From Umbelopsis isabellina (lineage: Eukaryota > Mucoromycota > Umbelopsidomycetes > Umbelopsidales > Umbelopsidaceae), in NCBI GenBank assembly GCA_016758905.1, contig JAEPQZ010000005.1, positions 1,479,624 through 1,543,623 on the forward strand: 64,000 nucleotides of DNA. Direction: 5' to 3'. Every line of letters starts with the position of its first letter. Positions within the stretch are counted from its first letter, which is position 1. The notes beneath the pieces are model-generated. The model worked only from the letters and a program-made list of their open reading frames with translations, did no database searches and had not been told where the DNA came from. Positions 49,869 to 64,000 of the stretch are shown here, piece by piece. Position numbers and translations under genes: made by a program.

Positions 49869-50973
49869 ATGGTCCTGTTCAAATCCGTCGTTGCCGTTTG
49901 TCTGGCTACCGCCGCCCTCACTGTGGCCGCCCCAGCTTCTGATGCCCATAGCCACCACCATAAAAAGCATGTGGTGCCTGGAAAATACTTTGATCATTTC
50001 ATGGTCATTCTTTTAGAGAATGAGAACTACAAAGTCAGTGGCAAATTGCTAGATCAGTTATTTGTGCCAATTATTTTTCTATTGTATTAATTGATTTCAT
50101 GATTTAGGATGCTGTTGCTGATCCTTATCTTGGTAATTTGGCCAAAGCGCACAAGGGCAACTTATTGACAGACTACTATGCGCTCACACACCCCAGTCAG
50201 CCTAATTACATTGGTATCATTGGTGGATCTCTTTTTGGATTCGATGATGATGATCCGAAAACCATTAATGTAAGATTTTCACTTCATACTAGCTGAAATT
50301 CTTGATCAATGTAGCCATACTGACATTGTTAATAGGAAAAATCTATTGTCGATATCCTGGAGCCAAAAGGTCTGACTTGGAGAGAGTATGCCGAAGATTA
50401 TACGCCAGGACCCGGCGGCGCATGTAACACCAACACTTCGCTTGGCGATGGCATCTACATGCGTAAACATAATCCATTTATCAGCTACTCTACCGTCGCC
50501 AACAATATTACTCGTTGCCAGAACGTGGTACCAGCTACTCAGCTCTACAAAGACATCGCCGATGGTAATCTGCCACAATTCTCGTTCTACACGTGAGTAC
50601 TTATGTCTGTTTAAGCGTTTTATTCTGCTTCCCATCATAACAATCATCATGTAGCCCAAATATGAATGACGATGGCCATGACACCAATCTCACAACTGCC
50701 TCAAAATGGGTGCAAAGCTTCATTGAGCCTTTGATGAAGGAGCCAAAGTTCTTGCAAAACACCGCCGTCATGATTACATGGGATGAGGCCAGAGTCTACA
50801 CCATTCCCAACCAAGTCTGGTCTGTAATAATCGGTGATGCGGTCAAGCCATTAGCAAAAAACTCTGATAACACTCGCTACGACCATTATTCTATTCTGGC
50901 TACCATTGAAGATAACTGGGATCTCGATAATCTAGGTCAGAACGATGTCAACGCCACTGTTTTCCATTGGTAG
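49869..50973 (+). CDS. Secreted acid phosphatase, phosphoesterase family (copy 1)
   Basis: Four exons: 49869-50033, 50108-50269, 50336-50592, 50655-50973; 300 residues with signal peptide (about 1-20) and a His-rich patch (HSHHHKKH) after it. Phosphoesterase-family metal-binding signatures: HFMVILLENENY, HPSQPNYIGIIGGS, NMNDDGHDT and ITWDEA. Related fungal enzymes are phosphate-repressible acid phosphatases or phospholipase C-like proteins acting outside the cell. N-glycosylation sites are present. I do not see a perfect CACGTG Pho4-type site in the 300 bp upstream, so phosphate control cannot be claimed. First intron has a GTCAGT donor. Confidence 0.88.
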
Positions 50974-52249: not shown

Positions 52250-53388
52250 ATGGTCTCCTGGAAGTTTGTAACCGGTGTCATTGCTGCTGCTGCTGCCGTC
52301 GTCTCTGCCGCTCCTCTGGAGAAGCGCATTGTTAGCGGTAAAAACTTTGACCACTTCATGGTCATTGTTTTGGAGAATGAGGATTACGCCGTAAGACTTG
52401 GTGCCTTTATTTTGAATGGTTTTCCAATTTCTAATCCCTCTTCTTTTTTTTAGGCCGTCATGGCTGATTCTTACTTCAGCACTGTCGCTGCCAAGCACAA
52501 TGGTAACCTTCTTACCAACTACCAAGCTATCACTCACCCTAGTCAGCCCAACTACATTGCCATGATTGGTGGATCCACCCTCGGATTCAGCAGGTTAGAA
52601 TTATTCATCATCAAATCAAATTTCTTCGTGACATCAACTAATCCTAAATCGACACAGTGATAACCCTGGAACCACCAGCGTGAGTTTTGGAACACATCCA
52701 GGAAGTGGAAAGCGTACTACAAGTTCTAACTTATATTGTTTCTAGTCCAAGAGCATCGTTGATATCTTGGAGCCTGCCGGTATCACGTGGAAGGAGTATG
52801 CTGAGAACTATACTCAAGGATCCAATGGTGCCTGCAATACTGCTACCTCTCTAAGTAACAGCTTGTACATGCGCAAGCACAACCCGTTTATCAGTTTCAC
52901 TACTGTTACCAGCAACGCCAGTCGCTGTAAGAACATTGTTCCTGCTACCCAGTTGCAGACTGATATCAACAGCGGCTCTGTTCCCCAGTTCATGTTCTAT
53001 ACGTGAGTAGGCGAAATTCCTTAATATTAGTACATACGCATTCACTGATTTTTTTTTTCCCCTCAACAGCCCTAACATGAACGACGATGGTCACGACACC
53101 AGCCTTTCCACTGCTTCCAAGTGGACCAAGGGTTTCCTCGAGCCTTTGTTGTCTAACACTGCATTCAACAAGAATCTTGCCGTTTTGATTACCTGGGATG
53201 AGACCAAGGATTACGATATCCCCAACCAAGTCTGGTCTGTTTTGGTCGGTTCCAGTGTCAAAGCTCTTGCTAACAACACTGATAACACTGCATACAACCA
53301 TTACTCTATCTTAGCTACCGTTGAAGAGAACTGGAGTCTCGGAAACCTTGGCCAGGGTGATGTTTCCGCTACCCCCTTCAATATTTAA
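52250..53388 (+). CDS. Secreted acid phosphatase, phosphoesterase family (copy 2)
   Basis: Five exons: 52250-52390, 52454-52593, 52658-52679, 52746-53002, 53070-53388; 292 residues, signal peptide then KR dibasic site (PLEKRIVSG). Motifs as in copy 1: HFMVIVLENEDY, HPSQPNYIAMIGGS, NMNDDGHDT, ITWDET. The last two exons have the same lengths (257 and 319) as in copy 1, showing tandem duplication. Copy 2 has one extra intron that creates a 22-nt exon (DNPGTTS region) within what is one exon in copy 1, and lacks the His-rich patch. Codon bias is stronger than in copy 1, suggesting higher expression. Confidence 0.88.
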
Positions 53389-53849: not shown

Positions 53850-55954
53850 TCAAGGCGTCTTCTTTACATCAGATGCGGACGCCACCTGAGTGAAGCGTAA
53901 AGGCCGACGTTTGCTAGGAACTGGATACGTCAATCTCGGTATTTGTATTTTGTCTGATGAAGTTGGTAACAGGGGCTTTTGAGCCAGAGGTTGCAAGGAT
54001 TTAGTAACACCTGCAGGAATCTCAGAGGACCGACTAGATGTATCACTAGTTTCGGGCACTGAGATAGGTATATCGCTAGTGGGCACAGGGCTGGGTATGT
54101 CATTAGTTTCTTGTACTGGGCTAGGCGGGCTATGAATGACAGGCGCAGGGGGCTCTGAAGATGCATTGTTTGCTGAGGGATGAGGATGTTCGTTGTCAGA
54201 AGTATCAAAACTGGCCTGCTGCTCGTTCTCAGTTTCTAGAGTATTGTTTGTTGTTGCCGTATCTGATACAGCCAAATCCTCTGCCGGTAATGACTCGGAT
54301 ACGTCTTCACTGTCTTTAGAAAATTTGCAGCGTTTGCTTTGCGCTCTTCCAGGACACACTTGACTATTGCACGTTTTACAGGTTCGTGGCCGTCGATGCC
54401 TTCCAATAGCCGTTATTCGACGCTTGATGCCAGGTATGGGCATACGCATCATCATTGAAGGCGCACCAAGAGCAGGATGCTTATTTATGTCTCTTCTAGC
54501 TGGGAGGATGGGCCGCATAGCCGGAGCAGTTGGTTTTTGAAGCGGTGCAATCCTCATGGGCATTGGAGGTGGTGGAATAAACTGAGCAGTTCGAGAAGTA
54601 GGAATATATATGGGTATAAATTGAGGAGTAGATCTTGAGAAGTTTGGTAATATCGGCTGAATTTTGACTTTGAGTTCTTGTGGTTGTGGGACATCTTTTG
54701 TAGCTGCGGCGCGGATTTTTTTCTGGCTATTTGTCGCGGTCAACTTTGAACTTCCAGAATTGTCGGAAGTAAGTCCGTGAGGCTTCGTGATCATCAGATT
54801 TTTTTGACACTGCACTCTTAGACGGTTCAGTCTAGCATTGTGAATTTCCTTCAGGTATCGAGTAAATCCTTTGGGGCTCATGATATTCATCAATGGCCGC
54901 ATCACATCCACCAGGGTCTTTGATATAGCACTTCTGTGAGTCATGTATGCCGGAAATGCTTCCTGAAGATGCATTGGCAACTGCTTCAGTATATTGATGT
55001 CATGCGCATTAAGTGTGACTGGACAGCGCGCGCATCGAAACCTTGTCGACATGATAAAAAATGATCTAGCATTACACGCAAAATCTGTTAATGAAGTATT
55101 CTGTCTGCCCGTAACATTTTCAGTGTACTCACCTGTCTACATCCAATACACCTCGTGCATGCGGTGACTTGTTCCACCCTTGTGAGCTCAGTTGACTCTT
55201 ACATTTTGGACATGTCAGAGCAACAGGCTGTAATAGATTTGGTGCCCAGATGAAAAGGCGTGGTTTGAGTAAAATGTTTGAATCGGCCGAGGATTGCAAT
55301 GGGAAGACAGGATCCGGTGGTTCTATCCAACATGTGCCACGTTCATACTCCATTATTTTTTTATCGACAGTGAAGCGTTTCTGAATAATTTCAAAATATT
55401 CTGCAAGATGTGAGGGTGGCATGTCTTTGTGATTTTCCCTATCCTCTTCGTGCTCTTCTTCGTCGTCATCACTTTTGTCTCTATGGTTGTCTTCAATTTG
55501 ATTCTCACCAAATGTTAAATACGCTAAGAAAGCCTGTTTTAGATAGGAAATTCCATTTAAATTTGTAACTTATTTTGAGAAAGCTACCTTGTTCCGAGTG
55601 TCTCAATGAAGTGCCTAAGCAGCATGATCTTTTCAAATAACTCCATGTTGCTTTGTCAAGGTCGATAGCGTTATATTCTCCATCTCTTTTGTTTTTGTTG
55701 TTACGGTTATCACCCGTATATCCATCAAATCCTTGTGCTTGAGATGAATTCAAAACAGGCTCGTTCTCGTCAAGAGGCTCGTCAAATACAGCTTTTACAC
55801 CACTGCGAGTGCCATTAGTTGCCTTAACTGTTTTCGGATTTTTAGCATCAGCATCAAAACGTACAAGAGCCGTTGAGTTACTATCCATACCTGTATTAGA
55901 GATCGCAGGGGTGGTCTTAACATCCTCCATGTGACCTTGGTCGTCAGGTTCCAT
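53850..55954 (-). CDS. DUF6729-like Cys-rich protein of unknown function
   Basis: Three exons: 55588-55954, 55133-55523, 53850-55065; 657 residues. A natural-looking first acceptor (AACAG) gives an early stop; the next TTAG keeps the frame. Order: disordered acidic start; a domain with PPSHLAEYFEII, GTCWIEPPDPVFP, FIWAPNLL, CPKCKSQL, RGVLDVDR and RFRCARCPVTLNAHDINILKQLP, a layout I associate with DUF6729; a basic middle; a knuckle with C-K-T-C-x4-C-P-G-R-x6-C; a long Ser/Pro/Thr tail. Paired cysteines suggest two zinc sites and nucleic-acid binding. I recall such proteins as expanded in Mucoromycota and sometimes near mobile elements, but no transposase, terminal repeat or target duplication is visible here. 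Function unknown. Confidence 0.68.
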
Positions 55955-60197: not shown

Positions 60198-61120
60198 TAT
60201 CAGTTTTCGAATACGTTTCTTTGATTTGTATGTCAGAAGTCATTTATATTAATTTCAGGCCCGTAGAAGATCAGAATCTTTTTGACTCAAATCAGTTTCC
60301 GCAATTCCCCCGCACTCCTCGGCTTGGCAGAATTTCTTGGCCAGCGCGAGAGACCATATCTCATGTGCTGATATTTGAAAACAACTATATAAAAAATATA
60401 TAGAAATTCTTGAGCGACAATTGATTGTAAACGTGTTTTTGTCTGAGCATTTTCATAGACAAAGAGAAATGCCTACTTCAATATTGATTCGCAGTTTATA
60501 TGAGTGCTTTTGTTACCACAGAGTTCCCGTTAAAAAAGGTGGAACAGCGTGATTTCAGTGTTCACAGTTCTCATATGTCAATATTTTGCCTGTATGAGCA
60601 AAATTAACGATATGATATATTATCTTTACAAGAGCGTAATCCCAGTATCGTTCACAGTTTTAGTAAAACTTTGTAGTAGGTTGATCACCTCTAAGCGAGC
60701 TGATTGGCTGGATCAATATAACTGCTGCGTCTGCAATTCGAGAATGTGCCAATGAGATGGTAACAGCGATTGTCATCATAAGTGACTGACTAATGCGGAA
60801 AGTTGATGTGCATCTGGGTTATTGCCCATCAGCCCAAAGATCGTAGTAATTAACCTGTGTGAAATGTTGATGTTATAAAATGCTCAACGACCAAGTATTG
60901 TATGTGATGTATAAAAATACAAGCGCACGTTATATTACGCATAACTACCAAGTTATACTATCAAATTACTTTGCAACTTTGTCAATATTGAGCATGCGAC
61001 GCCACCTTCAGACGCAACACACGCGTAAAGTTTTACAACCCAGGAAAGTGATGCACAAGTTAACGTCAGTTATGCCTTGTCACTAACCTTAGAATTGATA
61101 CAGTTGAGATCTTGACCATT
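60198..61120. other. Intergenic between monooxygenase and zinc-finger gene
   Basis: AT-rich, no supported coding frame. Short frames at 60549-61086 lack domains, though RRHLQTQHTRK at about 60995-61030 vaguely resembles a decayed zinc-finger end and could be an upstream exon remnant. Confidence 0.35.
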
Positions 61121-61888
61121 ATGCACTTAAACGAAGGTTCATTTATATGCAAGTGCGAGAAAACGGACCAAAGTGCAAGTTCTATTCAACGACATGCAAA
61201 GTCTTGCAGGGGACGACGACAAGGCGGTGAGGTGGCGCAAGTAGCAAGAAGAGAGACAGCAGCTGACCAAGTTGTTAATGTCATGGAGCCATTCGAAGCG
61301 GAACGCGGTTTGACGGACTTTCACGAAGACTTGGACTTTATCAAGATCAATATACATTGGAAGGCAGCCATTTGCATCATATGTCAGATATGTGTCGGCA
61401 GGAAGCAGCTTTTAAATCACTGTGTTCGCAGGCATAAGAAGCGACTTTCGGCTAGGCCAGAAGCGATTGTCGCGTGGGTCAGGGGTAGCTCAGAGCTACC
61501 GCCAGTAGAAGGAAAAGCAGAGCTTTTGAGAGTAATTCTCGGCATACCGGTATACCATGGATGGCGATGCAAGTGCTGTGTGTACTATTGCCAAAGTGTC
61601 CGTATCATGGAACGACATCAAAGCGAGCAACACCAGGATGAGATTCTAGATGTGGTGGACAGGGCAGAACCATGTCGGGTACAACGACTCTATAGAGGCT
61701 TGGGCAGCAAGTACTTTGGTGTTTCTGATGTGGACGACAACGGTGAGAATGAGGAAATGCAGAATGTCGCAGCGACGATGCTGGATGAACCCAGTACTGG
61801 CGGTACTGTGGATATCAAGGCTATTGTCAGTGATAGGTTGCCCGAAAGCCAGCTGCTTGAATACCGGAGCAGGTGTATGATATCCTAA
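61121..61888 (+). CDS. Zinc-finger protein, OrsD/DUF3505-like, beside telomere-like repeats
   Basis: Single exon, 255 residues from ATG 61121 (an earlier TTG is in frame). Three finger-like units: C-K-C-x11-H-x4-C near residue 10-30, C-I-I-C-x11-H-x4-H about 85-105, and C-K-C-C-x12-H-x4-H about 150-170. The middle one sits in the context INIHWKAAICIICQICVGRKQLLNHCVRRHKK, similar to the OrsD/DUF3505 type of paired finger found in many fungal subtelomeric genes and beside telomere-linked RecQ helicases. No helicase is visible here. The C-terminal third is acidic and without a domain. Codon use is more even than in the housekeeping genes. Could be a stand-alone gene or the 5' part of a truncated larger one. 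Confidence 0.55.
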   Translation: MHLNEGSFICKCEKTDQSASSIQRHAKSCRGRRQGGEVAQVARRETAADQVVNVMEPFEAERGLTDFHEDLDFIKINIHWKAAICIICQICVGRKQLLNHCVRRHKKRLSARPEAIVAWVRGSSELPPVEGKAELLRVILGIPVYHGWRCKCCVYYCQSVRIMERHQSEQHQDEILDVVDRAEPCRVQRLYRGLGSKYFGVSDVDDNGENEEMQNVAATMLDEPSTGGTVDIKAIVSDRLPESQLLEYRSRCMIS

Positions 61889-62026
61889 CTCTGTACTGTA
61901 TCAACACTGCAACCTGGTAAAACAAATGCTTATCGTTCCTATACAAATCTAGTTGACTTCACTCCGATTTCCAATATGATCTTCATGGAAGTTGGGAAAT
62001 GGAAGATGAAAGATGGGAGTTGATAG

Positions 62027-62047
62027 CCTAAACCCTAAACACTAAAG
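62027..62047. repeat. Telomere-like CCCTAAA repeats, inverted relative to the main array
   Basis: CCTAAACCCTAAACACTAAAG: about two and a half copies of the C-rich heptamer, opposite in orientation to the TTTAGGG array at 63773-63880. Confidence 0.7.
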
Positions 62048-63772
62048 ATCAAAAAAAGCATTAAGATTCCAAAAAGAAGATGCAGAGTATAAGATATAAG
62101 AACAAGACATCAGAATACTACATATAAGATGAATCGTTAAACAGAAGCATAACTTATGGAATACATGAATCACAAAAACACAACATACCACAAGGAAACT
62201 AACGAATAAAAAAATACAGACCACAAACTATAGAAGACAACTTTAGGATAGGACATTAAGAACGAACAATCAAAAATCTAGGATTTAGGAGATAGGGATT
62301 AAGGTTTAGAATTTAAGGAGTAACATTTAGACTTTAGACTCAAGGATATAGATTATAGGATTTCTCAATATAGGGGTTTAATAGTTAAAATATAATGCAG
62401 GATTTAGAAGTTAACATATAGCATTTAGACTTTACGACTTAAAATTCAGGATTAATAATATAAGATTTGAAGGTTTACAATGTTAGATATAGGATTTAAA
62501 ATTCAGGATATAAAATTGAGAATATACAATATAGAAATAGAAATTAGACATTAGAACTTAGAGTATAGAATATACAATTTAGAATTCAAACAAAGAGATC
62601 GAGGACCAAAGAATTTAGAAGATAACATTAGAATTTAGGCCTTATAATATACGATTGACAATTTAAGACATAGACCATAAGAATCTTAACATTTAGAACA
62701 TAATAGCTGGATTATAGACATTGGAGTCAGGACATAGGATATAACATGTAGGAATTAGGGGAAGGACGAATAGGATTTAGTTTATACAAGATAACTATAG
62801 GGAAACATAGATTTCAGACATAGAATTTAGGGAACGGACTTAATTTTTTAGGGTTTAGGACCTAGGCCTTCAGAAGATACAATGTTTTAGGGGTGCAGGA
62901 GTGTAGGCTTTAGGGTCAGGACTTTGGATATAAGAAATAGGATTTATAATATAGGATGTAAAAAGGCAAGGTTTAGGGTTGAAGATTTAGGAACCAGGAT
63001 TTAAGATTTAGGATATAAGATATAAACACTAAGATTTAAATATAGGCTTTAGGATATAAGGTATAGGAGATATGATACAGACTTTAAGTGACATAAGGGT
63101 AGGCCTTACAATATACAATTTTAGACTATAGACATTACGGCTTTACCATATAGGATGTAAGGCCGAGAAGGTAGAATTTAGGCGGTAGGAGATAGGATAT
63201 ACGATATAGGATTGAGGATTTAAGATTAAGATATAACATCTAGGGATTAAAATTTAAGAGTTTAAGATTTAGAATTAAAAAAAAAATAAAAAATTAAAAA
63301 TTTAGGATTTAGGATTTAAAATAAAACTGTAGAAATAGGAGGTAGGATTTATAATTGAGAGATTAATATTTAGAATTTAGGATATAAGGTTTAGAATTTA
63401 TAGTTGAGAATATACGATGTAGGGTTTACAATACAGGGTTTAAAGTTTAGGATTGAAAATATAGAATATACGAGTTAGAATTTAAGGTTTAAGATATAAA
63501 CATTAGGATTTAGAATATAGGATACAAATCATTATAATATAAAAAATAGAGGTTTATGACATAGGATACAAACTTTAAGATATAGGGCTTAGGATTTAGA
63601 GCTTTAAGCAATAGAATTTAGGGTTTAAGATTTAGGAGATACAATTTAAGATTTAGGATTTAGGATTTAGGATTCAAGATCTAGACTTTAGACTTTAGGG
63701 ATTTAGGGTTTAGGATATAAGGTTTTAGGCTTTAAGGTTTAGGATTTAGGGTTTAAGGTTTAGCGTTGAGGA
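62048..63772. repeat. Decayed telomere-like tract keeping a 7-nt register
   Basis: About 1.7 kb of purine- and AT-rich, C-poor sequence built of heptamers such as GATTTAG, AATTTAG, GATATAA, GGTTTAG, AATATAG. Reading in steps of seven from about 63340 to 63530, nearly every unit fits (G/A)(G/A)(T/A)TTAG with no indel; the same holds in 62495-62770 with more change. Most differences from GGTTTAG are G to A or T to A. Similarity to the perfect unit rises from left to right. Boundaries on the left are approximate; the register is clear from about 62250. Confidence 0.8.
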
Positions 63773-63880
63773 TTTAGGGTTTAGGGTTTAGGGTTTAGGA
63801 CTTAGGGTTTAGGGTTTAGGGTTTAGGGTTTAGGGTTTAGGGTTTAGGGTTTAGGGTTTAGGGTTTAGGGTTTAGGGTTT
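63773..63880 (+). repeat. TTTAGGG telomere-type array
   Basis: About 15 nearly perfect tandem TTTAGGG units with one variant near 63797-63803. It is G-rich on the plus strand, so a chromosome end would have lain to the right, but 120 bp of non-repeat DNA follow. TTTAGGG is the plant-type unit; most fungi use TTAGGG. Confidence 0.93.
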
Positions 63881-64000
63881 CACTCGGTCAAATAGTGGTA
63901 AAGAAATAACCTTTTATCCATGAATTATTTCGTAATGAAAGCGTGTTATTAAACCATTTGCATGCTGTAGATACATCATCTTTGCCGTCATTGTCAAATT
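63881..64000. other. Non-repeat DNA distal to the telomere-like array
   Basis: Ordinary AT-rich sequence with no frame. It shows that the array is internal in this assembly: either interstitial telomere DNA, an inserted element boundary, or a join in the assembly. Confidence 0.6.

What the first reader, a model, noticed from the sequence alone, without database searches (positions are those of the whole stretch)
62048..63880. Telomere-like tract that decays in base identity but not in 7-nt phase
From right to left the perfect TTTAGGG array fades over 1.7 kb into sequence that looks random but is still divisible into heptamers with almost no indels. Changes are mostly G to A on the plus strand, i.e. 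C to T on the C-rich strand, plus T to A. This is what is expected if turnover renews only the distal end while proximal repeats accumulate substitutions, possibly by cytosine deamination. A gradient of this length with intact phase is striking and could date the array.
Basis: partly seen in the sequence, partly recalled or inferred. Interest (0 to 1): 0.75.

Follow-up and report, generated by a model that had tools for sequence, protein, structure and literature searches.

The report
Worn fungal telomere repeat array
A stretch of old chromosome-end repeats in what looks like a fungal genome has been worn by point mutations while largely keeping its seven-letter rhythm; similar worn arrays are described in plants, so it is ordinary in kind, though its uneven mutation pattern and abrupt edge deserve a note.

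Summary
The tract is real but differs from the description. A 7-nt register anchored on TTTAGGG is well supported from about 62250/62277 to 63880. The first 200 bases (62048-62276) are marginal. Identity to TTTAGGG is flat at about 0.60 for some 1.25 kb and rises to 1.00 only over the last ~0.35 kb, so the fade is short and most of the tract shows no gradient. The register is kept far better than in shuffled sequence, but not without indels. Changes go mostly to A: 344 of 436 G changes are G>A, 131 of 244 T changes are T>A, 90 of these at the second T. Position 4 (A) is the steadiest, also when masked from the alignment. Plateau units are not more like their neighbours, so spread by unit amplification is not seen. 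At 63881 the array meets non-telomeric DNA; a 20-nt inverted CCTAAACCCTAAACACTAAA lies at 62027-62046. Best reading: a proximal or former telomere whose inner part left telomerase upkeep as one old cohort, with turnover limited to the distal few hundred bases, later joined to other DNA. Organisation, model and the TATAGGG variant are published for Arabidopsis. New member of a known kind; deamination would explain G>A only.

The parts
62027..62046 (-). Short inverted telomeric piece CCTAAACCCTAAACACTAAA (20 nt, one mismatch), opposite in orientation to the main array
   Evidence: Exact 13-nt match and a second with 1 mismatch on the minus strand; pairs I2 (88%) and I5-I13 (95%) complementary to the distal array; C-orientation model 5.2 nats, G-orientation -8.4
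62048..62276 (+). A-rich stretch with marginal heptamer signal; may or may not be array
   Evidence: Profile z 4.9 (62048-62250) but lag-7 z 1.5 and identity at aligner noise
62277..63523 (+). Plateau: degenerate TTTAGGG units at about 60% identity without clear trend; right limit approximate
   Evidence: Model fits, shuffles, lag-7
63524..63807 (+). Ramp: variant units rising toward canonical; limits approximate
   Evidence: Ramp length 0.36 kb from the edge
63808..63880 (+). Perfect TTTAGGG units
   Evidence: 0 changes
63881..64000 (.). Non-telomeric DNA to the window end
   Evidence: Sequence; no heptamer signal, z -0.6
61112..61888 (+). ORF with OrsD domain, 138 bases before the inverted piece; neighbour only, no link shown
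   Evidence: Pfam PF12013 E 3.9e-08

Best explanation
A proximal (subtelomeric) or former telomere of a fungus with TTTAGGG telomeres. Units beyond the reach of telomerase are copied as ordinary DNA and collect point substitutions. The flat 1.25 kb is one cohort of about the same age, for example one long regrowth after a deep truncation; afterwards only the distal ~0.35 kb turned over, which gives the short ramp up to perfect repeats. The perfect end was later joined to non-telomeric DNA (insertion, subtelomeric fragment or rearrangement), recently relative to the plateau, or it was renewed until then. Shown: register, orientation, plateau plus ramp, bias toward A, lack of neighbour similarity, abrupt right edge in this sequence. 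Inferred: telomerase history, single-cohort origin, cause of the bias, nature of the right-hand DNA.
For: One head-to-tail orientation with identity rising to perfect repeats at the right. Plateau units are no more like neighbours than like any other (z -1.0 to 1.8 at unit lags 1-8; 190 units in 62251-63700; 114 distinct heptamers, 114.3 expected under column independence). G>A is 39-62% and T2>A 10-15% of changes in each of the five zones with at least 42 changes. Perfect block: 0 changes, relative age at most 0.042 of the plateau if column rates are equal. Arabidopsis arrays run degenerate, variant, canonical in one orientation, with variant arrays up to 3,384 bp, TATAGGG runs and non-telomeric fragments inside arrays (PMC11406999, passages and section 6). 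Umbelopsis nana ends carry AAACCCT (PMC13042297).
Against: The plateau is not fully uniform: a five-block fit splits it into 0.56 (62319-62846) and 0.64 (62847-63693), though BIC does not favour the split, and the rank trend is p 0.24 to 63573 but p 0.009 to 63700. Changes per unit are more variable than under independence (variance 1.64 against 1.24). A4 is steadier than simple strand-symmetric decay predicts. Homogenised runs, reported as common in Arabidopsis, are not seen. Whether a chromosome end is near is unknown, and so is the telomere motif of this genome's true ends.
Confidence: 0.6

Rival explanations
1. The plateau was synthesised degenerate: telomerase or a variant template RNA misincorporated A at inner positions, while A4 had to stay correct for re-alignment.
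For: Flat profile, no neighbour similarity, kept register, steady A4 with column masked, A as main product.
Against: About 2.7 changes per unit would be extreme for telomerase; G5, which I recall as part of the usual alignment region, is conserved in only 0.57 of units; the distal ramp shows the same kinds of change at lower density, which suits ageing.
Confidence: 0.08
2. C-strand deamination or another hypermutation (RIP-like) acted on the array.
For: G>A is 344 of 436 G changes. G6 changes go with G7 changes: odds ratio 5.1, p 0.0008, one of 21 column pairs tested, uncorrected.
Against: With G/A states only the G6-G7 link is weaker (3.4, p 0.017) and G5-G6 and G5-G7 show none. CCCTAAA has no CpA, the usual RIP target (recalled). 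T2>A and G>C are not deamination products. The perfect end was spared.
Confidence: 0.13
3. Ancient fusion or break repair put telomeric repeats inside the chromosome and all decay came after.
For: Non-telomeric DNA follows at 63881; an inverted CCCTAAA piece lies at the left.
Against: One internalisation predicts equal age throughout, but the right-hand ~0.35 kb is younger. CCCTAAA then TTTAGGG is the reverse of a head-to-head fusion.
Confidence: 0.12
4. Sequencing or assembly artefact, such as nanopore miscalling or a chimeric join at 63880.
For: Nanopore reads turn TTAGGG into TTAAAA, and similar errors are reported on TTTAGGG (PMC9414165, passages).
Against: The reported errors are uniform repeats; here 186 plateau units comprise 111 different heptamers and 2 read TTTAAAA. 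A chimeric join at 63880 alone cannot be excluded.
Confidence: 0.05
5. An unrelated heptamer minisatellite that merely resembles a telomere.
For: Bacterial heptamer arrays with variable positions exist, for example L043 607-1077.
Against: Continuous register into perfect TTTAGGG, a motif reported for fungal telomeres.
Confidence: 0.02

Closest known systems
[quoted passage not shown] PMC8860613, passages)
   Same: TTTAGGG heptamer; degenerate then variant then canonical in one orientation; kilobase scale; TATAGGG units; non-telomeric fragments can sit inside the array
   Different: Here probably a fungus; no homogenised runs seen; 1.25-kb flat part; nearness to a chromosome end unknown
Umbelopsis nana AAACCCT telomeres (PMC13042297, passages and section 12)
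   Same: Same motif; reported GC 44.16%, and 54 of 64 one-kb pieces of the window lie at 0.38-0.47
   Different: The parts I read describe peaks at contig ends and do not mention worn arrays
TTTAGGG single-base variants in Arabidopsis by TelFinder (PMC10100673, passages and section 9)
   Same: T>A giving TATAGGG is among the prevalent changes at right ends
   Different: It also names TTAAGGG and TTTATGG; here T3>A (13) and G5>T (11) are rare
Interstitial telomeric sequences (PMC6410037, passages)
   Same: Degenerate telomere-like block with non-telomeric DNA on both sides
   Different: Perfect distal edge with a short ramp; origin not established

Membership tests
Proximal degenerate telomeric array (Arabidopsis type) | Units derive from the telomere heptamer in one head-to-tail register | tested here: met
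   62277-63880; 62048-62276 marginal
Proximal degenerate telomeric array (Arabidopsis type) | Order degenerate, variant, canonical toward the distal side | tested here: met
Proximal degenerate telomeric array (Arabidopsis type) | Lies next to a chromosome end | not testable with these tools
   Window ends 120 bases past the array; no whole genome held
Proximal degenerate telomeric array (Arabidopsis type) | Local homogenisation or higher-order repeats (frequent there, not defining) | tested here: not met
   No unit-level neighbour similarity; longest run of identical neighbours left of 63700 is 3; tandem repeat finder does list a few weak 14-, 21- and 40-43-base periods
Umbelopsis telomere | Heptamer AAACCCT / TTTAGGG | tested here: met
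Umbelopsis telomere | Genome belongs to Umbelopsis | not testable with these tools
   Genus inferred from motif and GC. Pfam hits Mim2, Kre9_KNH, OrsD and secretory lipase are fungal-type by recall
RIP product | C>T mainly at CpA | tested here: not met
   The unit has no CpA; the C after A and before C (G7) is most changed, 167 to A of 258
Head-to-head telomere fusion | TTTAGGG array followed by CCCTAAA array | tested here: not met
   Order is CCCTAAA (62027) then TTTAGGG; no minus-strand match right of 62046 at up to 2 mismatches; only 120 bases of right flank are held

The most novel reading that the evidence does not exclude
The plateau was written degenerate in one episode by a low-fidelity telomere synthesis that favours A at inner positions and must keep A4, and the TATAGGG variants seen both in plants and here reflect the same synthesis bias rather than later mutation.
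Probability: 0.06. Interest if true: 0.75.

Novelty: new member of a known kind. Interest (0 to 1): 0.25.

Why it matters
It extends the plant picture of worn telomere-adjacent repeats to what is probably a fungus with plant-type telomeres. If other ends of the same genome show a flat worn part, a short ramp and the same T2>A and A4 pattern, such arrays could test whether variants come from later mutation or from telomerase.

Tried and rejected
Long smooth gradient: rejected. A staircase of age blocks: I first favoured it (three- and four-block BIC 2272.5 and 2270.0 against 2280.8 for exponential with floor on the whole tract, one- and two-block fits being worse, 2401.9 and 2305.9). The control showed that the left block is at aligner noise, and without it smooth plateau-plus-ramp models win, so I withdrew the staircase, the relative age of 2.2 for the left block, and the toy truncation model as support (median of 4 steps in 300 runs with arbitrary settings). 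I lowered the main confidence from 0.62 to 0.60 and moved one point each to degenerate synthesis and deamination for that reason. Spread by unit amplification: not seen, although 3 of 28 single-column lag tests had |z| above 2 and one of 49 next-unit tests had p below 0.01. RIP: rejected on context. Nanopore miscalling: unlikely. Rfam: 0 matches at gathering thresholds. One search ranked the best lag-7 stretch of each of 136 loci and showed the first 60 letters of 40; 4 of these were runs of N; I saw none that I would call the same, a weak check. Papers seen only as listings: the others; no report of worn arrays in Umbelopsis appeared there, which is weak evidence.

Limits: unmasked counts rest on a Viterbi alignment with a chosen profile, which by itself gives A at column 4 in 0.835 of units in shuffled plateau sequence (observed 0.965, shuffle maximum 0.889), and lifts identity to 0.49 in shuffles. 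Masked-column counts avoid this but include phase slips.

Full report
Setting. The window holds split, eukaryote-type genes. Pfam families such as Mim2, Kre9_KNH, OrsD and secretory lipase point to a fungus, by recalled family ranges. GC is 0.38-0.47 in 54 of 64 one-kb pieces. No whole genome is held. A perfect TTTAGGG array ends at 63880 and is followed by 120 bases of non-telomeric DNA, where the window stops. Umbelopsis nana has this heptamer at both ends of 16 of 18 contigs (PMC13042297, passages and section 12); Penicillium polonicum is another fungus reported with TTTAGGG (PMC10100673). Umbelopsis is an inference, not a test.

Register. Lag-7 identity exceeds dinucleotide shuffles in 200-base windows from 62248 to 63847 (z 2.3 to 12.1) and is weak at 62048-62247 (z 1.5). 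Free heptamer fits in separate blocks converge on the same unit. In 62277-63693 aligned identity is 0.611 against 0.490 in shuffles, and inserted positions are 1.8 per 100 bases against 7.4. For 62048-62276 identity (0.371) is not above noise (shuffle maximum 0.387; elsewhere in the window mean 0.417), so that stretch may not be array, although its profile score is high (z 4.9). Over 62048-63880 the alignment has 260 units, 36 inserted bases and 23 deleted positions.

Shape. Of 1797 aligned bases 693 differ from TTTAGGG. From 62277 on, the best models are a flat 0.60 with a ramp over the last 0.36 kb (BIC 1953.7) and an exponential with scale 0.15 kb to a floor of 0.59 (1954.0). Step models reach 1966.8, and a linear trend 2014.3. 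Slope in 62277-63693 is 0.056 +- 0.031 per kb; in 62251-63573 it is 0.039 +- 0.034. The plateau is not saturated: with each column masked in turn, T1, T2, T3, A4, G5, G6 and G7 are kept at 0.67, 0.51, 0.74, 0.88, 0.53, 0.50 and 0.14 in 62251-63700, so six of seven columns are far from base composition.

Spectrum. Unmasked, 62048-63880: G to A 344, C 71, T 21; T to A 131, C 65, G 48; A changed 13 of 258. Masked, 62251-63700: G to A 290, C 54, T 30; T to A 125, C 45, G 49; A changed 25 of 205 (summed by me). T2 gives 90 of 131 (unmasked) or 70 of 125 (masked) T>A and differs from T1 and T3 (p 1e-10 and 0.0004). G7 is hit most, then G6 and G5. The unmasked stability of A4 is partly made by the aligner (0.835 in shuffles); masked, 25 of 205 changed against 68 of 203 (T1) and 53 of 203 (T3), p 3e-7 and 4e-4. 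Strand-symmetric decay without context effects does not predict this. Deamination of the C strand would explain G>A only.

Independence. In 190 units of 62251-63700, whole-unit similarity to neighbours is no higher than chance and the number of distinct heptamers equals expectation, but changes per unit are overdispersed (variance 1.64 against 1.24) and columns 1-2, 5-6 and 6-7 are linked at uncorrected p 0.03, 0.03 and 0.0008. With G and A states only, 6-7 remains at p 0.017 and 5-6 vanishes.

Edges. CCTAAACCCTAAACACTAAA at 62027-62046 is inverted relative to the array. The order CCCTAAA then TTTAGGG is the reverse of a head-to-head fusion. I have no firm explanation: a telobox-like element, a fold-back remnant or the end of an inserted piece are possible.

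Mechanism. I favour decay after loss of telomerase upkeep, with one old cohort (the plateau) and turnover limited to the last ~0.35 kb (the ramp). The perfect block has no changes; at plateau rates its age is at most 0.042 of the plateau's, so the join to other DNA is recent in relative terms, or the end was renewed until then. The published Arabidopsis model is the same in outline and names template variants and reverse-transcription errors as minor possibilities (PMC11406999 section 9). T>A giving TATAGGG is prevalent at Arabidopsis right ends (PMC10100673 section 9), and a run of 15 TATAGGG units is reported.

Verdict. Unexplained: why A4 is steady and why T2 so often becomes A.

Noticed in passing
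L128 11282-11386; L133 10178-10275; L134 2026-2130; also L129, L130, L131, L136: Seven of nine viral contigs found with perfect TTTAGGG repeats share flanks around the array (TTCTATCC on the left, TTTATTTGACC on the right) but have 4 to 15 uninterrupted copies. L133 encodes a terminase large subunit and a portal protein, so at least this one is a tailed phage.
   Followed up: partly
L043 607-1077: A contig titled Blastocatellia bacterium has a 470-base heptamer array with constant AGGA and variable other positions, a look-alike of the plateau.
   Followed up: no
window 61112-61888: OrsD-domain ORF ends 138 bases before the inverted piece; it may be a subtelomeric or mobile gene.
   Followed up: no
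window 53850-55569 (minus): Two adjacent ORFs match successive parts of DUF6729, probably one gene split by an intron.
   Followed up: no
window 50641-50973 and 53011-53388: Two phosphoesterase-domain ORFs look alike by eye, probably a local gene duplication.
   Followed up: no
window 62021-62046 and 63857-63882: Inverted pair, 26 nt, 88% complementary, reaching past the telomeric letters by six bases on the left and two on the right (TGA ... TCA), like short terminal inverted repeats; could be chance, no target duplication seen by eye.
   Followed up: partly
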